Shown here piece after piece: positions 9,200 through 46,255 of a stretch of DNA of 64,000 bases. Each line of letters opens with the position of its first letter. Within the stretch, counting starts at the first letter, position 1. Source of the stretch: Woeseia oceani (lineage in GTDB: Bacteria > Pseudomonadota > Gammaproteobacteria > Steroidobacterales > Woeseiaceae); assembly GCF_001677435.1 (NCBI RefSeq), contig NZ_CP016268.1, forward strand, positions 1,167,001-1,231,000. The letters are read 5' to 3'. The notes below the pieces were generated by a model, which had not been told where the DNA came from, did no database searches, and saw nothing but the letters and a program-made list of their open reading frames with translations. The translations under genes were made by a program, and so were the position numbers.

Positions 9200-9768
9200 C
9201 TACAAAGGCGCCGGGTAAGCCGACGCATCCGCAACGATAGAACCCAACAGATCTGCAGGACTGCGCACCGCTCGACCACCGCGCTTCAGTACGTGGGTGT
9301 ACACCATGGTGGTCTTGACGCTCGCGTGGCCGAGCAGTTCCTGTAACCGTAAGCATTCGGTTTCCGTAAGCCATTGCCATACAGCAAGCTCGCCATCAGC
9401 CAATGCCGCCCGGACATCGCCTGCAATATGCGCGCGACTTCCGCCTGCGATAGAACGATGGGAACCCGCACCGGCCGCCGTGCCCGCACCACCTCGTCCA
9501 TCCAGGGCAGTTCCACCGCCAGAACCTTTTTGTAAAGGAACAGAATGGAGCTAAGTGCTTGATTTTGTGTGGATGCAGCGACGTGACCGTGAGTGGCCAG
9601 GTGGCTCAGGAAGGCCTGTATTTCTTCGGCTCCCATCTCCCGCGGGTGCCGCTTGCCATTAAAGGCGATGTAACGGCGTATCCATTTCAGATAGGATTCC
9701 TCAGTGCGGTAGCTATAGTGGTGAAGCCGCAGCGTGTCTCGAACAGCATCCAGCAGCATCCGTGCCAT
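9200..9768 (-). pseudogene. intI: Integron integrase (IntI) remnant, internally deleted and frameshifted
   Basis: This was an integron-type tyrosine recombinase catalysing attI x attC insertion. The N-terminal SAM-like domain is intact ([36 protein letters not shown]) up to YGNGLR, the box I arginine region. The frame then shifts at about 9380-9390 and the sequence jumps from ECLRL straight to [24 protein letters not shown], the extreme C-terminus with the nucleophile Tyr. Compared with IntI proteins, over 100 residues are missing, including the catalytic Lys and the HxxR box. It reads away from the cassette array, as intI genes normally do. It must be inactive unless complemented in trans. 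Confidence 0.9.
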
Positions 9769-9917: not shown

Positions 9918-10373
9918 ATGAATCTTCGCGTTGCATGGAAGTCGATCCCGGCCATTTGTGTGTTGGTAGCAAGTTGTGTCTCTGTTCAAGAGGCAAATGT
10001 GCCCACTGACACAGATGCAGCTATTGAATCAATCGAAATTGGAGATACGCTTCCGGGGCCAGAGGGGAAAGAATCAGAGACCTTTGAATCGGATAAACCT
10101 AAGCTCTGCAAATTGTCTCGAACTGACATTGAAAAATTGCGAATTGCAGCCAAGGATTATCTCCTGGAAAACTGGCCGGTCCTCGATTCGCACTGCGAGA
10201 GAATCTCAAACAAGGTAGTCTTCTCGAAGTACCACGGGTGTATGATTCTCGGCGGCCCAGTAAAGAACCCATCTTGTGAAGCTCCGTCTCATTTGGGCTA
10301 TGCAATTTCATTCGAACTTGAAACTCTGGAACCAACACGAATCGGATGGATGACTGAGAGAAACGGCGAATGA
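9918..10373 (+). CDS. Integron cassette 1: hypothetical lipoprotein
   Basis: A 151-residue protein with a signal peptide and a clear lipobox (LVASC, Cys at about residue 20), so it should be exported and lipidated. The mature part is acidic and Cys-containing (CKLSRTD, DSHCERISNK, HGCMILGG), with a domain near residues 65-145 that I do not recognise. The ATG is 8 nt after the attI-side core and an AGG precedes it directly. Codon use is more A/T-rich than the host genes, as expected for a mobile cassette. It is followed 16 bp later by a full attC. Confidence 0.75.
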   Translation: MNLRVAWKSIPAICVLVASCVSVQEANVPTDTDAAIESIEIGDTLPGPEGKESETFESDKPKLCKLSRTDIEKLRIAAKDYLLENWPVLDSHCERISNKVVFSKYHGCMILGGPVKNPSCEAPSHLGYAISFELETLEPTRIGWMTERNGE

Positions 10374-10389
10374 GCATTCCACGACTGCT

Positions 10390-10486
10390 TCCTAACATTG
10401 CGCTGCACCCGTCACTTGACCCAGCCCGCCTTGCGCTGCCGCTCCAGTCGACCTGCGTCAAGTGCGTGTGAGCTTAGACGTTAGGC
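10390..10486 (+). other. attC site 1 (97 bp)
   Basis: Core R'' TCCTAAC at 10390-10396 and R' GTTAGGC at 10480-10486 bound an imperfect palindrome containing two copies of TGCGCTGC, 33 bp apart. Cleavage is expected between G10480 and T10481. It is the reference copy of the attC family in this window. Confidence 0.9.
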
Positions 10487-10493
10487 GTCATTC

Positions 10494-10958
10494 GTGGACG
10501 GCGCGAAACTCGCAAAGATTGTCATTGAACAGGCACAGGAGGATGGGACTGTAGACGTAGAGACTCCGTGGGCCGAGCATCTTGGTGGGAATCGGTATCT
10601 CCTTCGGAACCTGCCTTTCTATGCTTACGGCGTATCCTTTGAGGACATTCTTAGGTGTGAACCAAAGTACGAAGACGATACGCGTCCATACTTAATTGAA
10701 GTCCTAGAGAAGTCCGGAAACAGTACTCTTCGAATCATCCTGGACGAATCGCACAATACTTCGACGCGGTCACAAGCGATTCTCGATCAGCTTCAAGACA
10801 TGGATTGCGGCTGGGAAGGAGCCACGTCGACATTCATCGTCATAAACGTGCAACCACAGTGCGACTTCGCCGCAGTCTGTGATTATCTAACTGAGCAAGA
10901 GGTAAGATGGGAGCATGTCGATCCGACGTACGAAGAGCTCTACGGCAGTGACGCCTAA
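10494..10958 (+). CDS. Integron cassette 2: DUF4265-like protein
   Basis: A 154-residue cytoplasmic protein matching the DUF4265 pattern as I remember it: VETPWAEHLGGNRYLLRNLPFYAYGVS followed by an FDSG-like VLEKSGNSTLRI stretch. The function of that family is unknown. The start is a GTG 8 nt after the attC core, with no clear ribosome binding site, as is common in cassettes. Its TAA stop lies inside the next attC core (GCCTAAC), so the recombination site supplies the stop codon. Confidence 0.75.
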   Translation: MDGAKLAKIVIEQAQEDGTVDVETPWAEHLGGNRYLLRNLPFYAYGVSFEDILRCEPKYEDDTRPYLIEVLEKSGNSTLRIILDESHNTSTRSQAILDQLQDMDCGWEGATSTFIVINVQPQCDFAAVCDYLTEQEVRWEHVDPTYEELYGSDA

Positions 10959-10965
10959 CAATGCG
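10953..10965 (+). other. attC site 2, left part (split by IS)
   Basis: R'' core GCCTAAC plus AATGCG, the start of an attC. The remainder resumes at 12340 on the other side of the IS1111-type element. Confidence 0.8.
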
Positions 10966-10979
10966 TCTATGGACTCCTC

Positions 10980-11203
10980 TGTCAACTGTTAACGCCTATC
11001 GGACAAGAATACGGCTGCAATCGTCTATTCGGCCTCGAAGTTGGCGAGCTTGCCGCCGGGCCATCATGAGAACCGCACTGCCCGGACCAGTCACTGCAAT
11101 GTGCTCGAGGCACGGCATTGTTATCGGCCTTACAGGCAGTACGGAGTACCGTATTGTTCATGAACGCGTGAGCGTGTCGCAGCCTCGGGTAGGAAAAGCA
11201 AGG
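10980..11203 (-). ncRNA. Candidate bridge/seek RNA region of the IS1111 element
   Basis: This 224-bp non-coding stretch lies between the transposase stop codon and the downstream inverted repeat. In IS1111-group elements a guide RNA (bridge or seekRNA) that specifies donor and target is encoded downstream of the transposase. Position and size fit, but I did not fold it or identify the guide loops, so the boundaries are those of the non-coding region only. Confidence 0.45.
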
Positions 11204-12244
11204 TTATTGGGTGAAGCGTAGAGCGTCGTCGCCGTTGAAGGGTTTGCGTTGTGTCCAGACGGCCCAGACGATGCGTGCCATCTTGTTGGCGAGTGCTACC
11301 GTGGCCTTGTTGTGACCGACGCGCAACTGGGTAGCGAGAGCCCAGCGTTGCAGCCGGGTAAGCGGTGCACCGCGATTGCTGGCCCTGGCGGCGGCCAGCA
11401 GCGCCGAACGTGCACCGTGTATTAACAGGGTTCGCAGGTAACGATCGCCTTGTTTGCTGATGGCGCCGAGTCGTCGTCGGCGGCCGGTGCTGTGTTCACG
11501 GGGCGTAATACCCAGCCAGGCCGCAAAGGCGCGTCCGCGCCGGAAGGCATGGATATCCGGTACCCGGCCGATCAACGCGGTCGCCGTGACGATACCCACA
11601 CCGCTGATGCCTTCGAGTTGCGCGGCATCGGGCTCCTGACGGCAAAGTGCCGCGAGGTCACGGTCAAGTCGTTTCAGCTGCTCATCGAGGGTCCCGATAT
11701 CATCGATAACTTCGTGGAAGGAGCGTTGCAACGGGTAGGGCAAGGTTTCTGCGGCGAGCCGCAAACAATGGCTGAGCTTGCCTCTGCCGCGGGGCAAGGT
11801 CATGCCGAACTCGGCCAGCAGAGCTTTCGCGCTGTTGATGCGGGCGGTGCGGGCTTTTTGCCACTGGGCACGGATGCGGTGCAGGCTTTGCAGGGCTTGT
11901 TGATGCTCGTTCTTCACCGGAACGGGTTTGAGTTCGCGGTCCTGATCGGCCTGCAGCAAGGCATCGGCATCGGCAGCGTCGGTTTTATTGCGACGCACGT
12001 ACGGCCGTACGTAGCGCGCGTGCAGCAGTTTGACCTGGTGACCATGCTGTAGCGCTACGCGAGCCCAGTAGTGCGCGGTCGAGCAGGCTTCCATCACCAA
12101 CCGGGACGGTGGTGTGGTGGCCAGCAGCCGGGAAAACTGGCGCCGGTTAAGGCGTCGGCGGCCAACGATGCGATGACGGTGATCGGCCAGGGAAACCTGA
12201 AACACGGTTTTTGATAGATCGACAGCAATCGTCGTAAACTCCAT
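11204..12244 (-). CDS. IS110-family (IS1111 group) DEDD transposase
   Basis: The RNA-guided recombinase of the element. The N-terminal RuvC-like DEDD domain (AVDLSKTVFQVSL at residues 5-17; KTDAADADALLQ near 85-100) is followed by a coiled linker and the C-terminal Tnp20 domain with GISGVGIVTATALIG, FAAWLGITP and GDRYLRTLLIHGAR. I start at 12244 because a perfect GGAGGAG site lies 6 nt upstream; the in-frame ATG at 12271 has none. The 346-residue frame is intact. The ribosome binding site is the exact complement of the element's upstream terminal repeat. Confidence 0.93.
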   Translation of the reverse strand: MEFTTIAVDLSKTVFQVSLADHRHRIVGRRRLNRRQFSRLLATTPPSRLVMEACSTAHYWARVALQHGHQVKLLHARYVRPYVRRNKTDAADADALLQADQDRELKPVPVKNEHQQALQSLHRIRAQWQKARTARINSAKALLAEFGMTLPRGRGKLSHCLRLAAETLPYPLQRSFHEVIDDIGTLDEQLKRLDRDLAALCRQEPDAAQLEGISGVGIVTATALIGRVPDIHAFRRGRAFAAWLGITPREHSTGRRRRLGAISKQGDRYLRTLLIHGARSALLAAARASNRGAPLTRLQRWALATQLRVGHNKATVALANKMARIVWAVWTQRKPFNGDDALRFTQ

Positions 12245-12339
12245 GACGGACTCCTCCTGAGTAAGGAACATTCATGATTTCACACCCGAATGTTGGCACA
12301 TCGCGATGCCGGGAATACCGGGAGGAGTCCATCTCATCA

Positions 12340-12390
12340 CTGCCGCTCCAGGCGGTCTGAGTCAAGTGCGGGTGAGCTTAGACGTTAGGC
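12340..12390 (+). other. attC site 2, right part (split by IS)
   Basis: Runs from CTGCCGCTCC to the R' core GTTAGGC at 12384-12390. Joined to 10953-10965 it makes a 64-bp attC, exactly 33 bp shorter than the others. 33 bp is the spacing of the TGCGCTGC direct repeats in the long form. Confidence 0.85.
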
Positions 12391-12562
12391 TGCAACGGAA
12401 GCAGTGTCGTGTCCGAGTTTCTTCTATGTACCCGAGAGCGGACGTTCGCTTGGATTAGGTCCGACCGGCTGCTACTGACCCGTTGCGGTCGTTTGCGAAT
12501 TGCGGATATTTCGTTGCCTCGGTTCACCAGACTTCATACATCGTACGATTGGGGATCGACAA

Positions 12563-13276
12563 TTGAAAACGATAACTCTCGCGGCGCTAACCGCCATTGG
12601 CGTCTTCATCGCCGCCTGTAACTATAAGTACATGGAAACGCAAGACATAGAGATCACGCATTACGCGGACGACGAACGGAACACCAAATTAGCTGAGGAT
12701 CTGATGTACTACGACCCTCGCTTTTTGGCGCATCAGATTTTGGCGCTTAATGAAGAAACCTCTCATGGAATTCAGCTCGGATATTTCGTTAGGTCATCCG
12801 ATAACAAACCCAGCTATCGGATCACATATAATCGCTCAGTCGATGCTGTCTCTGAGAATCTCGAAGACCTCAAGAGCCAGTTTGAGGCTTACATACCACA
12901 GCTTGCAGCGAAACATGCGTCAAAAGAGTCGCTGTTTCTGGAACTCGAACCAATGGGCATGAAATGGGCGCAGGACTTCTTTTCGCAAGAGGCGGGAACG
13001 ATTTTGGAGAACAGCTCTAAACTGCTCCGAGATTTCGTGACGGTCGCCCAACTCGAAGAATTTCAGCGCGAATTAGAAACCGAATTCGGCTCGCCGACTA
13101 AATTTGAATTTACACGAGCGCAATTCTATGAGGAGCACGCTGACGTTCCAGATTCCATATCGCTGTTCTACGAAACGGAGATGTCCGACAATAGTGTGCT
13201 CATGTTCAGGGTAAGTCTCCACGAGACAGAACAGGAATGGCGGGCGCTAGGATTCAGATTTGACAAGATCCGATAA
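12563..13276 (+). CDS. Integron cassette 3: hypothetical lipoprotein
   Basis: A 237-residue protein with a signal peptide and lipobox (FIAAC, Cys at about residue 19). I choose the TTG at 12563, which has GGGGAT about 7 nt upstream and gives a clean signal peptide; the frame stays open further upstream to 12500 but would bury the signal. The mature part is acidic, rich in Glu and aromatic residues, and predicted soluble. I do not recognise a domain. A/T-rich codon use fits the cassette origin. About 170 bp of leader separates it from the preceding attC core. Confidence 0.72.
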   Translation: MKTITLAALTAIGVFIAACNYKYMETQDIEITHYADDERNTKLAEDLMYYDPRFLAHQILALNEETSHGIQLGYFVRSSDNKPSYRITYNRSVDAVSENLEDLKSQFEAYIPQLAAKHASKESLFLELEPMGMKWAQDFFSQEAGTILENSSKLLRDFVTVAQLEEFQRELETEFGSPTKFEFTRAQFYEEHADVPDSISLFYETEMSDNSVLMFRVSLHETEQEWRALGFRFDKIR

Positions 13277-13341
13277 GCGAATAAGTACGATTGACCAGTC
13301 CGCTAATGGCCGAAAGGAGACATCGAATTGGGTTCGCATTT

Positions 13342-13382
13342 TGCTTAACGAACGTTCGCTTCGTGGGAAACATCCGTTAGAT
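13342..13382 (+). other. Possible short attC-like element
   Basis: GCTTAAC at 13342-13348 and GTTAGAT at 13376-13382 look like R''/R' cores enclosing a small palindrome (GAACGTTC). It is only 41 bp, below the usual attC minimum, and no ORF lies between it and the next attC. It may be a decayed site or chance. Confidence 0.25.
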
Positions 13383-13397
13383 GCGCCTCACTGTGCA

Positions 13398-13494
13398 GCT
13401 TAATTGTACGCTGCACCCGTCAATTGACCGAGCCCGCCTTGCGCCGCCGCTCAAGGCGACCTGCGTCAAGTGCGACTGAGCTTAGTCGTTTGGA
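13398..13494 (+). other. attC site 3 (97 bp, degenerate cores)
   Basis: Same length and body as attC site 1, but with decayed cores: GCTTAAT at 13398-13404 and GTTTGGA at 13488-13494. Probably poorly recombinogenic on the R'' side. Confidence 0.85.
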
Positions 13495-13511
13495 ATCAGG
13501 GGAGATTTGCA

Positions 13512-14210
13512 GTGATTCGAATAATTACCGTGTTTTTTGTTCTGCTCGTGATGGCGGGATGTGGCACGCCCATTTCCACCGGTGTCCGACCAGCCGAATA
13601 CTACAGTGCGGATATTGCTGAGCCGTCCGTTGGTTCGTTGTTTTCTGCCGACGCAGCCGTTCTGTCAGACGAGGCGATTGGTCGCATTTTGGAGTTTGAC
13701 TACTCGCCACCGAAGCTTGGCCGGATCGCATTGATACCATTCGGTCGGGAGGTGTGGTCGGGGTGGTCCGAAGAATTGTCGGTGGCCTCGGACCAAATGC
13801 GAGCGGAAGTTTTGGAAAGACTCAAATCGTCACCCCGCGTATACGATGTGTCGTACTTGCCCTCGATTTTGATACCTGAACAAAAGTCAGTACCGCATTT
13901 GCGAGAAGCAGCGGCGAGGTATCAAGCTGATCTTTTGCTCGTCTATCGAAGCTACTGTCGAAACTTTGAGCGGTATCGATTTTTCGCGGCGAACCGATCC
14001 AAAGCATATTGCGGAGTTGAGGCCGTGCTTCTGGATACGAGGACCGGTTTGGTACCGTTCACATCAGTAGTTCTTAAGACATTTGAATCGCAACAGAGCG
14101 GCACCGATGTCAACTTTCGGGAAACTGTGCTGAAAGCGCAGCTACAGGCAACGACTGACGCTCTTGCTGGAGTGGTGGCGGAGATTGTTGGATTTCTGGG
14201 TAGGCATTGA
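13512..14210 (+). CDS. Integron cassette 4: hypothetical lipoprotein
   Basis: A 232-residue lipoprotein with the signal segment IRIITVFFVLLVMAGC and a lipobox Cys at residue 18. The GTG at 13512 is preceded by GGGGAGA at 13499-13505 and is preferred over the upstream frame that overlaps the attC. The mature domain includes LGRIALIPFGRE, YDVSYLPSIL, YQADLLLVYRSYC and TRTGLVPFTSVV. This alternating pattern resembles outer-membrane-associated lipoproteins that sum up stress or copy-number-type motifs, but I cannot name a family. Flanked by attC sites 3 and 4. Confidence 0.75.
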   Translation: MIRIITVFFVLLVMAGCGTPISTGVRPAEYYSADIAEPSVGSLFSADAAVLSDEAIGRILEFDYSPPKLGRIALIPFGREVWSGWSEELSVASDQMRAEVLERLKSSPRVYDVSYLPSILIPEQKSVPHLREAAARYQADLLLVYRSYCRNFERYRFFAANRSKAYCGVEAVLLDTRTGLVPFTSVVLKTFESQQSGTDVNFRETVLKAQLQATTDALAGVVAEIVGFLGRH

Positions 14211-14219
14211 TGAGTTGAT

Positions 14220-14316
14220 GCCTAAAAATGCGCTGCACCCGTCACTTGTCCCGGCCCACCTTGCGCTGCCGCTCCAGTCAATCCTCGTCACGCACGGGTG
14301 GGCTCAGTCGTTAGGC
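14220..14316 (+). other. attC site 4 (97 bp)
   Basis: R''-like GCCTAAA at 14220-14226 and R' GTTAGGC at 14310-14316, with the same central TGCGCTGC repeats as site 1. It begins 9 bp after the stop of the preceding cassette gene. Confidence 0.88.
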
Positions 14317-42730: not shown

Positions 42731-42746
42731 GGCGCCAAAAATTGCG

Positions 42747-42843
42747 GCCTAACTATGCGCTGCACTTGTCATTATATTTGTCCCGCCCTCCGCTGTTGCT
42801 CAAGGAAGTTTTCGTCAAGTACGTGTTTGCTTAAACGTTAGGA
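42747..42843 (+). other. attC site B (97 bp)
   Basis: Consensus R'' GCCTAAC at 42747-42753 and R' GTTAGGA at 42837-42843. The outer arms match the other attC sites while the centre is diverged. Confidence 0.85.
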
Positions 42844-42919
42844 ACCGGAGAGATCGTGGCTAGCCCCGTCATAATTGGTCCAGTTGCTATGTTAGTGTTT
42901 CCCGACCCAGGAGGCACCA

Positions 42920-43186
42920 ATGAAAGGCAAGCGATTTACAGAAGAACAGATCATCCGGATTTTGCAGGAAGCTGAGGCCGGGCTGTCGGTAGCCGATGTC
43001 TGCCGCAAGCACAACTGCTCGGAGCAGTCGTTTTACCGGTGGAAGTCGAAGTTTGGCGGCATGGCTGTTTCTGAGGCCAAGCGACTGAAGGAACTCGAAC
43101 GCGAGAATGCCGAGCTGAAGAAGGTCGTCGCGGAACAGACGCTGGACATTCGGATGTTGAAGGACGTCAACAGCCGAAAGTGGTGA
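42920..43186 (+). CDS. IS3-family transposase OrfA (copy 1)
   Basis: An 88-residue HTH protein (KRFTEEQIIRILQEAEAG, VADVCRKHNCSEQSFYRWKSKFGG) with a C-terminal leucine zipper (LKELERENAELKKVVAEQTL). It binds the IS ends and, through frameshifting or coupling, forms the OrfAB transposase. The ATG is preceded by AGGAGG. The stop overlaps the orfB start by 7 nt. Confidence 0.95.
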   Translation: MKGKRFTEEQIIRILQEAEAGLSVADVCRKHNCSEQSFYRWKSKFGGMAVSEAKRLKELERENAELKKVVAEQTLDIRMLKDVNSRKW

Positions 43187-44040
43187 GCCTGGCAGAGCGA
43201 CGTCGCTGTGTAACGTACTTACGCAACCAGTACGAGATCAGCGAACGACGCGCCTGTCAGGCGATACAGCTGAACCGCTCAAGCTACCGCTACGTTGGCC
43301 AACAGGAGTTGGTCGATGCGGCCTACGAGGAAGTGGTCCGGTTATCGGAACGCTACCCGTATTTTGGCTACCGCAAGATCTATGACCTGATGCGGGGCAG
43401 CTGGTCGATCAGCCGGGAGACGGTGCGGCTGATTCGACGGCGAGAAGGGCTGCAGGTCATTAAAAAGCGCCGGAAACGCAAGGTACTTGGCATGACGACA
43501 CAGTGGGTGAACCAGGCTCGGTATCCGAACCACGTCTGGAGCTACGACTTTGTCTTTGATCAAACGGAGGATGCGCGGCAACTGAAGTGCATGACGGTGG
43601 TCGACGAGTATACTCGGCAGGGATTTGAGATCACGGTTGGTCGCAGTCTGACGGCAACGGATGTCATTCGGGTTCTCGAAAAGCTGTTCGAAGAACACGG
43701 ACGACCGGTCTGCCTGCGCAGCGACAACGGCCCCGAAATGGTTTCAAAGGCAGTGCAGACATGGCTCAAGGAAAAACACGTCGACATGCACTACATCGAT
43801 CCTGGCAGTCCGTGGCAGAACGCCTACTGCGAAAGCTTCAACTCCATCTTTCGCAGTACCTGCCTGGATCGTTGGTTATTTGGCTCGATGACTGAAGCAC
43901 GGGTCGTGATCAACCAGTGCTTTGAGGAATACAACACGATCAGACCGCACGGATCGCTGGGCGGAATGAATCCGAAGCAATACCTACAGCGATGGAATGA
44001 AGAAAATACGAATCAACAACCGGAAATACTAACGGCGTGA
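43180..44040 (+). CDS. IS3-family transposase OrfB (copy 1)
   Basis: A 286-residue DDE integrase: HTH_21-like N-terminus (RRACQAIQLNRSSYRY), catalytic core VWSYDFVFDQTED (first Asp), CLRSDNGPEMVSK (second Asp) and the Glu in NAYCESFNS. GTG start overlapping the end of orfA. It differs from copy 2 at three residues near the C-terminus (QCFEE versus QWLEE, KQY versus KHY). Frame intact and presumably functional. Confidence 0.95.
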   Translation: MVSLAERRRCVTYLRNQYEISERRACQAIQLNRSSYRYVGQQELVDAAYEEVVRLSERYPYFGYRKIYDLMRGSWSISRETVRLIRRREGLQVIKKRRKRKVLGMTTQWVNQARYPNHVWSYDFVFDQTEDARQLKCMTVVDEYTRQGFEITVGRSLTATDVIRVLEKLFEEHGRPVCLRSDNGPEMVSKAVQTWLKEKHVDMHYIDPGSPWQNAYCESFNSIFRSTCLDRWLFGSMTEARVVINQCFEEYNTIRPHGSLGGMNPKQYLQRWNEENTNQQPEILTA

Positions 44041-44828
44041 GTGGACCAGAAATCTCGGGCTTGCCAATCGACATGGACTTCATCTCGATTGACGTCGAGA
44101 CAGCAAATCCGAATATGGCGTCTATCTGCCAGATTGGTGTTGTTCGATACAGCGATGGCGTGCTGAGAGAAGAGTGGGAGTCTTTCGTCGATCCGAACGA
44201 CTATTTCGACGGGATGAATATTGCTATCCATGGAATTACCGAAGAGGAAGTGGCTGGTGCGCCAGCGTTCAAGGAGCTTTATCCGGAACTAACTCGGTGG
44301 CTGGGTGACTCTGTGGTTATATGCCATACGCATTTCGATCGTCTTGCAATTGTAAGGGCGTGTGATCAGCACTTTATTGCACATCCTTCCTGTCAGTGGC
44401 TAGATTCATCCCGCGTTGCTCGCCGGGCTTGGTCGAAGTTCGCATGGAAAGGGTACGGTCTGGCAAATCTGTGCAATGAGCTCGGTTATACATTTTCGCA
44501 TCACAACGCGCTGGAGGATGCAAAGGCGGCTGCCCAAGTATTTCTTGCTGCATGCCAGGAAACTGGATTGGATGTGGCTGGGTGGATCGAGCGAGTTGAA
44601 AAGCCAGTCGAATTGGGGGGCACAGGCTCTGGCGCAGACATTAGGCGCGATGGTAATCCCGACGGAACATTCTTTGGGGATGTGATCGCATTTACTGGGG
44701 CTCTTGCTTTTCCTAGAAAGGAAGCTGCTGATCTAGCTGCATCAGTGGGGTTCCGCGTTTCAAGCAGTGTAACGAAGAAAGTAACTACGCTGGTGGTGGG
44801 TGTGGCAAGCCCGAGATTTCTGGTCCAC

Positions 44829-45689
44829 TCACGCCGTTAGTATTTCCGGTTGTTGATTCGTATTTTCTTCATTCCATCGCTGTAGGTAATGCTTCGGATT
44901 CATTCCGCCCAGCGATCCGTGCGGTCTGATCGTGTTGTATTCCTCAAGCCACTGGTTGATCACGACCCGTGCTTCAGTCATCGAGCCAAATAACCAACGA
45001 TCCAGGCAGGTACTGCGAAAGATGGAGTTGAAGCTTTCGCAGTAGGCGTTCTGCCACGGACTGCCAGGATCGATGTAGTGCATGTCGACGTGTTTTTCCT
45101 TGAGCCATGTCTGCACTGCCTTTGAAACCATTTCGGGGCCGTTGTCGCTGCGCAGGCAGACCGGTCGTCCGTGTTCTTCGAACAGCTTTTCGAGAACCCG
45201 AATGACATCCGTTGCCGTCAGACTGCGACCAACCGTGATCTCAAATCCCTGCCGAGTATACTCGTCGACCACCGTCATGCACTTCAGTTGCCGCGCATCC
45301 TCCGTTTGATCAAAGACAAAGTCGTAGCTCCAGACGTGGTTCGGATACCGAGCCTGGTTCACCCACTGTGTCGTCATGCCAAGTACCTTGCGTTTCCGGC
45401 GCTTTTTAATGACCTGCAGCCCTTCTCGCCGTCGAATCAGCCGCACCGTCTCCCGGCTGATCGACCAGCTGCCCCGCATCAGGTCATAGATCTTGCGGTA
45501 GCCAAAATACGGGTAGCGTTCCGATAACCGGACCACTTCCTCGTAGGCCGCATCGACCAACTCCTGTTGGCCAACGTAGCGGTAGCTTGAGCGGTTCAGC
45601 TGTATCGCCTGACAGGCGCGTCGTTCGCTGATCTCGTACTGGTTGCGTAAGTACGTTACACAGCGACGTCGCTCTGCCAGGCTCACCAC
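44829..45689 (-). CDS. IS3-family transposase OrfB (copy 2)
   Basis: A 286-residue DDE transposase with the same catalytic motifs as copy 1 (YDFVFD, RSDNGPEM, YCESFNS). Three substitutions near residues 248-270 distinguish it. The Trp-Leu version here (QWLEEYN) matches the pattern usual in IS3 transposases, so copy 1 carries the derived form. Frame intact. Confidence 0.95.
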   Translation of the reverse strand: MVSLAERRRCVTYLRNQYEISERRACQAIQLNRSSYRYVGQQELVDAAYEEVVRLSERYPYFGYRKIYDLMRGSWSISRETVRLIRRREGLQVIKKRRKRKVLGMTTQWVNQARYPNHVWSYDFVFDQTEDARQLKCMTVVDEYTRQGFEITVGRSLTATDVIRVLEKLFEEHGRPVCLRSDNGPEMVSKAVQTWLKEKHVDMHYIDPGSPWQNAYCESFNSIFRSTCLDRWLFGSMTEARVVINQWLEEYNTIRPHGSLGGMNPKHYLQRWNEENTNQQPEILTA

Positions 45690-45949
45690 TTTCGGCTGTT
45701 GACGTCCTTCAACATCCGAATGTCCAGCGTCTGTTCCGCGACGACCTTCTTCAGCTCGGCATTCTCGCGTTCGAGTTCCTTCAGTCGCTTGGCCTCAGAA
45801 ACAGCCATGCCGCCAAACTTCGACTTCCACCGGTAAAACGACTGCTCCGAGCAGTTGTGCTTGCGGCAGACATCGGCTACCGACAGCCCGGCCTCAGCTT
45901 CCTGCAAAATCCGGATGATCTGTTCTTCTGTAAATCGCTTGCCTTTCAT
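45683..45949 (-). CDS. IS3-family transposase OrfA (copy 2)
   Basis: An 88-residue helix-turn-helix/leucine-zipper protein whose translation is identical to OrfA of copy 1. It overlaps orfB by 7 nt and has the same AGGAGG ribosome binding site. Confidence 0.95.
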   Translation of the reverse strand: MKGKRFTEEQIIRILQEAEAGLSVADVCRKHNCSEQSFYRWKSKFGGMAVSEAKRLKELERENAELKKVVAEQTLDIRMLKDVNSRKW

Positions 45950-46156
45950 TGGTGCCTCCTGGGTCGGGAAACACTAACATAGCAACTGGACCAATTATGA
46001 CGGGGCTAGCCAGGTGACCAAGACATCTCTAAGCTGGGAGGGCACTCGAAGAGCAGCAAACACCGAAAAGCGGAACAGCTCGTAGCGGCAGGTGTACCGG
46101 TTCGAATAATTGGAGAATCAGACTTTAAACGACTCGTACAGATTGATACAGGGCTT

Positions 46157-46255
46157 GCCTAACAATGCGCCACCCCAGTTTCTTGACTCACTCCCTTCCT
46201 TGCATTCTCGCTCAAGCCACGTTGCTTCAAATACGAGTTAGATCAGACGTTAGAA
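46157..46255 (+). other. attC site C (99 bp)
   Basis: R'' GCCTAAC at 46157-46163, containing the TAA stop of the reconstructed exonuclease gene, and R' GTTAGAA at 46249-46255. The body is the most diverged of the complete sites, but spacing and palindromic layout are kept (CGAGTTAGATC near the L' side). Confidence 0.83.

What the first reader, a model, noticed from the sequence alone, without database searches (positions are those of the whole stretch)
10953..12390. IS1111-type element inserted precisely into an attC
Applying the 3-bp/7-bp rule outside the sub-terminal repeats, excision of 10966-12339 joins GCCTAACAATGCG to CTGCCGCTCC and yields a perfect attC with both cores. This matches the known IS1111-attC group that targets cassette recombination sites. 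It would also block mobility of the neighbouring cassettes.
Basis: partly seen in the sequence, partly recalled or inferred. Interest (0 to 1): 0.7.

Follow-up and report, generated by a model that had tools for sequence, protein, structure and literature searches.

The report
Integron-site IS with a host-matched guide
A 1.4-kb jumping gene sits at a fixed spot in a gene-cassette recombination site, very likely steered there by its own guide RNA, whose guide letters match the sites of this genome; but the site it occupies lacks a third of its length and would not be restored by precise removal.

Summary
The element is real and its ends were called correctly: 1,374 bp (10966-12339), DEDD transposase, sub-terminal repeats with 3 bp and 7 bp outside. 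A second, identical copy elsewhere in the genome also lies in an attC, at the same position and orientation. The transposase falls in one fully supported group with ISPa25, ISKpn4, ISPpu24 and ISPa62, seen here 13 bp into attC sites: a new member of the IS1111-attC group.

'Perfect attC on excision' is wrong for the window copy. The joined flanks make 64 nt, lack 33 bp (the L'' arm) and fold no better than shuffles; the second copy's flanks fold well. The loss equals a deletion between two TGCGCTGC repeats at the insertion point. The integrase gene is broken too, so blocked cassette mobility is moot.

Most interesting: the non-coding end carries a seekRNA-like block whose two guides match this genome's attC type. 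Across eight guide types of the group, guide and occupied attC covary (12 of 40,320 permutations as good, descent not corrected for). Expression and movement are untested. Not categorically new.

The parts
10966..12339 (-). Insertion sequence, 1374 bp, IS1111-attC group; left end (tnp start side) at 12339, right end at 10966
   Evidence: Two identical copies with different flanks; ends
11204..12271 (-). DEDD transposase/recombinase, 355 aa, open
   Evidence: PF01548 E 1.3e-14 and PF02371 E 6.3e-22; tree
10969..10979 (+). Right sub-terminal inverted repeat ATGGACTCCTC, with 3-bp extension TCT at 10966-10968
12322..12332 (+). Left sub-terminal inverted repeat GAGGAGTCCAT, with 7-bp extension CTCATCA at 12333-12339
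10966..11203 (-). 238-nt non-coding region downstream of tnp that holds the predicted seekRNA/bridge RNA
11115..11123 (-). Guide T (TAACAATGC): identical to the R'' side of the attC in cassette orientation, so pairs with the element's top-strand target
   Evidence: 9-nt match to the RE-side flank of the window copy, 7 nt to that of copy 2
11094..11100 (-). Guide B (ATTGCAG, followed by TG): its last 5 nt equal the LE-side flank of copy 2 and of 10 of 11 uninterrupted host attC sites
   Evidence: site listing
10953..10965 (+). Left part of the interrupted attC: R'' GCCTAAC plus 6 nt
12340..12390 (+). Right part of the interrupted attC; begins 33 bp too far in (L'' arm missing), ends with R' GTTAGGC at 12384-12390
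   Evidence: covariance-model score only 19.8 bits
10389..10486 (+). Intact attC of the preceding cassette
   Evidence: 114.6 bits, a training sequence of the model; fold -29.1 kcal/mol
13398..13494 (+). Full-length attC of the following cassette
14219..14316 (+). Full-length attC, next cassette
9248..9756 (-). Broken integron integrase gene: pieces 9364-9756 (model 1-131) and 9248-9349 (model 281-314), middle missing, different frames
10494..10958 (+). Cassette ORF (DUF4265) whose attC holds the element
12500..13276 (+). Next cassette ORF (weak DUF4019 match, below Pfam's cut-off)

Best explanation
This is a new member of the IS1111-attC group of insertion sequences. Inferred mechanism: the DEDD recombinase binds an RNA made from the element's 3' non-coding region. 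One guide (TAACAATG) reads the conserved R'' side of an attC and the other (TGCAG) reads the lineage-specific start of the L'' side, so a circular copy of the element is recombined into attC exactly 13 bp from its start, tnp antiparallel to the cassettes. Shown here: structure of the element, two identical copies both in attC, clade membership, guide blocks at homologous places, guide-target covariation, RNA pairings kept through changes. Not shown: transcription, circle formation, movement. At the window copy the attC also lacks 33 bp. The most likely course is slipped-strand loss between two TGCGCTGC repeats before insertion (about 0.6), less likely a loss after it.
For: Identical second copy in a full attC, same position and orientation. 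The 10 group rows form one side of a branch, 100/100 support, 59 rows. RE boundary 13 bp into an attC in 10 of 13 copies examined, and flanks of attC type at the same place in two further elements, G289 and G174. Guide B equals the LE-side flank of copy 2 in its last 5 nt, and 10 of 11 uninterrupted attCs of the genome carry CTGCA there (by eye from the listing). Swap test on 8 guide types: guide B 35 of 40 matched letters on the diagonal against a permutation mean of 22.0, 12 of 40,320 permutations as good; guide T 49 of 56 against 42.2, 240 of 40,320. Stem and hairpin around the guides: 8 pairs in 9 sequences, 70 of 72 cells paired, four pairs with three or four pair types. Slippage in the neighbour attC would give the observed junction.
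Against: ISPa21, inside the clade and with a TTGAA guide, is at a non-attC site in the one copy examined, so the clade is not strictly attC-bound. Two guides match their own targets poorly (Formivibrio 3 of 5, G174 3 of 5). Guide B of this element is followed by TG where the other eight have CG and its target has CG. The window copy's own flank matches guide B only 4 of 5. Other stretches of the non-coding region match the target as long: AACAATACG at position 46 (9 nt, copy 2's RE side) and TGCAGC at 185 (6 nt); the block was preferred because it is conserved between elements. No Rfam family matched the block. No expression data. The eight guide types are not fully independent by descent, which the permutation test ignores.
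Confidence: 0.88

Rival explanations
1. The 33-bp loss happened after insertion, by a deletion between the CTGC at the element's left boundary and the CTGC that starts the second repeat, or by recombination between two tandem copies of the element at both TGCG|CTGC sites.
For: The deletion ends exactly at the element boundary, which both routes predict; guide B still matches 4 of 5 at the second site.
Against: Only 4 bp of direct repeat is left after insertion, against 8 bp or more before it in the neighbour site. The second site matches guide T in only 3 of 8 positions, so a direct insertion there is not expected. No tandem copy was found in the genome.
Confidence: 0.35
2. A non-specific insertion that happened to hit an attC twice.
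For: Only two copies were found in this genome.
Against: Same base position and orientation within attC in both copies, and the same RE position in 10 of 13 other copies pooled (not ISPa21, G010 and G012; G010 and G012 lie outside the clade); guide match.
Confidence: 0.02
3. The guide-target match reflects only common descent of element and host attC lineages, not RNA recognition.
For: Element and host could co-diverge; the test treats types as independent.
Against: G056 carries two related elements in one array with different B guides, each matching its own, different attC (AGCAA and CTGCTG), although the second has two stop codons in its transposase. PMC11187229 reports RNA co-purifying with the transposases of ISEc11, ISPa11, ISKpn4 and ISPst6, need of the RNA for movement, and reprogramming for ISEc11 (sections 4 and 9 and passages).
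Confidence: 0.08
4. The flanks of the two identical copies were swapped in assembly.
For: Two identical 1.4-kb copies are a classic place for a false join.
Against: The 33-bp loss is wholly on one LE-side flank, so re-pairing the flanks would not restore it; only neighbourhood could be wrong.
Confidence: 0.05

Closest known systems
IS1111-attC group: ISPa25, ISKpn4, ISPpu24, ISPa62, ISPst6 (group named in Tetu & Holmes 2008, not held, and Post & Hall 2009, not looked up; both known here through citations in PMC11187229 and PMC11089894)
   Same: Clade, sub-terminal repeats (ATGGACTCCTC as in ISPa25), 3/7 ends, insertion 13 bp into attC, tnp antiparallel to cassettes, 3' non-coding region with guide block (ISPst6 itself was not examined)
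   Different: 45-48% protein identity; B guide is TGCAG instead of TTGAA, matching a chromosomal attC family instead of the class 1 integron type; RNA block followed by TG, not CG; window copy lies in a deleted attC
seekRNA/bridge RNA systems of IS110/IS1111 (PMC11187229; PMC11208160)
   Same: Guide matching each target strand, top-strand guide first, on the side downstream of tnp
   Different: Here inferred from sequence only; nothing expressed or tested
Non-attC IS1111 relatives IS4321 and IS5075 (targets: Tn21-type ends, from a title cited in PMC11187229)
   Same: Family and general layout
   Different: 32-33% identity and outside the attC branch

Membership tests
IS1111 family | DEDD transposase with Transposase_20 domain | tested here: met
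   PF01548 and PF02371
IS1111 family | Sub-terminal inverted repeats, usually 11-13 bp, with 7-bp left and 3-bp right extensions | tested here: met
   11 bp, 7 and 3; rule from PMC11187229 section 4
IS1111 family | Long non-coding region downstream of tnp | tested here: met
   238 nt downstream
IS1111 family | Circular intermediate with abutted ends | not testable with these tools
   Abutted ends would place TTGACA 17 bp before TGAGAT, read by eye; no experiment
IS1111-attC group | Transposase in the attC clade | tested here: met
   One side of a 100/100 branch, 10 of 59 rows
IS1111-attC group | Insertion at one fixed position and orientation of attC | tested here: met
   2 of 2 copies found in this genome
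IS1111-attC group | Precise insertion, flanks joined give the intact attC | tested here: inconclusive
   Met for copy 2; not for the window copy, 33 bp missing
seekRNA-guided element | Guides matching both target strands, top-strand guide 5' | tested here: met
   (sequence only)
seekRNA-guided element | RNA made and bound by the transposase, needed for movement | not testable with these tools
   Needs RNA and transposition experiments
Functional attC after excision (window copy) | R''/L'' and L'/R' arms that fold into a hairpin | tested here: not met

The most novel reading that the evidence does not exclude
attC-hunting insertion sequences carry guide RNAs tuned to the attC family of their current host: guide T reads the near-universal R'' side, guide B the lineage-specific L'' side. 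Changing some five guide letters is then enough to move from one bacterial lineage's integron to another's, and a single array (G056) can hold two elements programmed for two attC types.
Probability: 0.6. Interest if true: 0.55.

Novelty: new member of a known kind. Interest (0 to 1): 0.42.

Why it matters
It adds a chromosomal integron to the places where attC-targeting, guide-bearing insertion sequences are seen beside the resistance integrons, and gives a natural series of guide and target pairs within one clade, so that the pairing rules of IS1111 guide RNAs can be read from genomes and tested by swapping guides. It also corrects the reading of this site: an element in an attC need not mean an attC that precise excision would restore.

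Tried and rejected
Rejected: 'perfect attC on excision'; a third copy elsewhere (one search finds two; a 12-mer end search with one mismatch, 11 places, shows no further paired ends); an intact integron integrase elsewhere in the genome (nine matches, none over the cut-off, and the same search rings in all 14 control genomes).

Led nowhere: Rfam on 10300-13600 gave one match far below its gathering score. Homologues of the cassette gene, to find the same cassette with an uninterrupted attC: 2 of 149 genomes, own genome and one at 49% identity, not followed. The end pattern TAACNNNNCRYNNATGGACTC matched in 6 of 369 genomes, own included: right ends without a recognisable left end in G083, G174 and G266, doubtful ones in G340 and G190; not used in counts. 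The pattern for the conserved block matched in 6 of 369 and 6 of 398 genomes, own genome included in both. From these G289 and G174 (contig C96) entered the swap test. Dropped: G083, G280 and G134 (no element or no block); G529, one G770 copy and three G596 copies (no right end found by the script); two G770 copies, G666 and G702 (no left end found). By eye the right flanks of the G596 copies, two G770 copies, G666 and G702 look attC-like and that of G770_3 does not. G010 and G012 were left out of the final swap test because they lie outside the clade; ISPpu24, ISPa62, S. stutzeri H1 and ISPa21 because they share the ISKpn4 guide type (ISPa21 would have lowered the score). An earlier, smaller test gave 2 of 720 for six types and 2 of 5,040 with G010 added. 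The guide of G174 was read by eye because the script's spacer limit missed it, and the rows of the swap test were typed. MAFFT placed the hairpin arms out of register in some rows, so pairs were counted by a script that picked the best 4-bp stem in each row, which favours finding pairs.

Full report
WHAT IS THERE. The window lies at C1:1167001-1231000 of a single-contig 4.06-Mb genome. A short integron array starts near 9.75 kb: a broken integrase gene on the minus strand, then cassettes with attC sites at 10389-10486, an interrupted one at 10953-12390, and sites at 13398-13494 and 14219-14316. The interrupted site holds a 1,374-bp element with one 355-aa DEDD transposase on the minus strand (PF01548, PF02371). 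Its sub-terminal repeats are 11 bp, with 7 bp outside on the tnp-start side and 3 bp on the other, as PMC11187229 (section 4) gives for the IS1111 family.

SECOND COPY. The whole element was found once more, 100% identical, at C1:3334176-3335549 (40 of 60 first-look candidates were scored). Its flanks are R'' GCCTAAC plus 6 nt on one side and a complete attC remainder on the other. Joined, they fold at -30.8 kcal/mol with 0 of 200 shuffles as good. Both copies are therefore 13 bp into an attC, with tnp pointing against the cassettes. The identity of the copies and the open reading frame suggest recent movement (inference).

THE WINDOW SITE IS NOT A WHOLE attC. A covariance model from eight attCs of this genome finds 14 places at E up to 1; 150 of 842 first-look candidates were scored, so weak sites may be missed. 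By inspection, 11 are uninterrupted attCs with matches of 97-100 nt (eight of them trained the model; one, C1:2928592-2928689, has no recognisable R'), one is copy 2's split site, one is a partial match that I take for chance (C1:1185050, E 0.09), and one is the window site at 19.8 bits (E 0.42). Joined, the window flanks are 64 nt and fold no better than shuffles (65 of 200, 76 of 200). Of nine full-length sites folded as bottom strands (eight uninterrupted, one copy 2 joined), seven had z below -2.7; w14219 (z -1.04) and w42746 (z 0.35) did not stand out from shuffles, and three uninterrupted sites (w46156, L134, L135) were not folded. One search also folded two sites as top strands (z -2.93 and -1.50). 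So the fold alone is not a perfect criterion, but the missing 33 bp is a fact of the sequence: it is the stretch CTGCACCC...CCTTGCG present in the neighbour 10389-10486. In that site the two TGCGCTGC repeats start at 11 and 44, and slippage between them predicts exactly the observed junction. The element's insertion point lies inside the first repeat. Of 12 sites scored (11 uninterrupted and copy 2), six carry a direct repeat of 7-9 bp there, 33 bp apart; w42746 and copy 2 carry 5 bp at that spacing; the other four have their longest repeat elsewhere.

FAMILY. A scan of named genomes kept the best 80 of 437 relatives, the top one in Formivibrio citricus at 46%. In a 59-row tree with 40 of those 80, ten rows (this element, two of G056, Formivibrio, ISPa25, ISPpu24, ISKpn4, ISPa62, ISPa21, S. 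stutzeri H1) form one side of a branch with 100/100 support and in 100% of 200 bootstrap trees. The program warns that long branches meet within this group, so inner order is unsure. Of 13 copies inspected, 10 lie 13 bp into an attC; G010 and G012 (outside the clade) and ISPa21 (inside it) do not.

GUIDE BLOCK. The 238-nt region downstream of tnp contains GGCCGA-TAACAATG-hairpin-ATTGCAG-TG...GGTC. An alignment of 12 such regions puts the block at the same columns in 10; G010 keeps it only in part and G012 not at all. In nine sequences scored the layout is the same: an outer stem, guide T, a small hairpin, guide B. There 70 of 72 stem cells pair, and four of the eight pairs occur as three or four pair types; the script chose the best hairpin register per row, which helps. 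Guide T equals the R'' side of the target, guide B the last 5-6 nt of the LE-side flank. Copy 2's flank matches guide B in 5 of 5, and 10 of 11 uninterrupted attCs carry the matching CTGCA (by eye from the listing); the exception is window 46156-46255. The window copy's own flank matches 4 of 5. Matches as long exist elsewhere in the region (AACAATACG at position 46, TGCAGC at 185) and are unexplained; the block was preferred because it is conserved between elements.

SWAP TEST. With one row per guide type (8 types, this element represented by copy 2's flank) the true pairing gives 35 of 40 matched letters for guide B, against a permutation mean of 22.0; 12 of 40,320 permutations do as well. 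Over six letters it is 37 of 48 against 23.2, 10 of 40,320. Guide T gives 49 of 56 against 42.2, 240 of 40,320. Weak members are Formivibrio (3 of 5) and G174 (3 of 5). G056 is the best single case: two elements in one array with guides AGCAA and CTGCTG, each equal to its own attC flank; the second has a TGA and a TAG in its transposase frame, so it may be dead. Common descent is not corrected for.

HOW IT WORKS. PMC11187229 (sections 4, 9 and 13 and passages read) reports that an RNA from this region co-purifies with the transposases of ISEc11, ISPa11, ISKpn4 and ISPst6, is essential for movement, holds the target matches, and was reprogrammed for ISEc11. PMC11208160 (passages) predicts such RNAs in 93.0% of IS1111 elements. 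By this homology the element here most likely moves as a circle whose insertion is set by the two guides. Abutted ends would place TTGACA 17 bp before TGAGAT, a possible junction promoter (by eye).

THE INTEGRON. The integrase gene has matches only to model positions 1-131 and 281-314, in different frames. No match in the genome passes the family cut-off, whereas 15 of 60 genomes searched (own, which has none, and 59 relatives) have one that does. Cassette movement in this genome is thus probably halted for reasons other than the element.

LITERATURE. Searches 'IS1111' with 'attC' (20 of 32 papers shown), 'seekRNA' with 'attC', 'bridge RNA' with 'integron', 'IS1111-attC' and 'IS110, attC, guide, recombinase' listed no paper that I could recognise, from titles and abstract openings, as describing guide-to-host-attC covariation across lineages. 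Of the listed papers I read only parts of PMC11187229, PMC11208160 and PMC11089894. PMC11187229 itself describes natural reprogramming (ISEc11 and ISXne4) and shared guides in ISKpn4, ISPst6 and ISPa25. Only open-licence papers are searched; Tetu & Holmes 2008 was not held and Post & Hall 2009 was not looked up, so either may touch on it.

VERDICT. A well-called element of a known kind, with an unexpected flaw at its site and an informative guide. New member of a known kind, with a guide variant worth testing.

Noticed in passing
window 42857-46012: Two 99.75% identical, inverted 1,210-bp elements, each with a 286-aa ORF (by eye an IS3-like transposase), flank a 267-aa ORF (by eye exonuclease-like), between attC sites at 42746-42843 and 46156-46255: a composite-transposon-like insertion in a cassette array.
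   Followed up: partly
window 9248-9756: Integron integrase gene reduced to two pieces in different frames, middle of the gene missing.
   Followed up: partly
G000:C1:2928592-2929418 and 3329940-3334189: attC clusters far from the window, with no integrase over the family cut-off in the genome; attC sites lie in at least four places of it.
   Followed up: no
L184 (G056:C1:1-12500): Two related attC-inserted elements with different B guides in one integron array of a genome of the same order.
   Followed up: partly
L177, L178, L179, L180 (G083): Several right-end remnants (TATATGGACTCCC...) 13 bp into attC-like starts, no left end found: decayed attC insertions, or contig ends.
   Followed up: partly
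L112 (ISPa21 in NZ_OL468819.1): ISPa21 in a non-attC site; the 7 nt at its left end (CGAATTG) equal the first 7 nt of its right flank.
   Followed up: no
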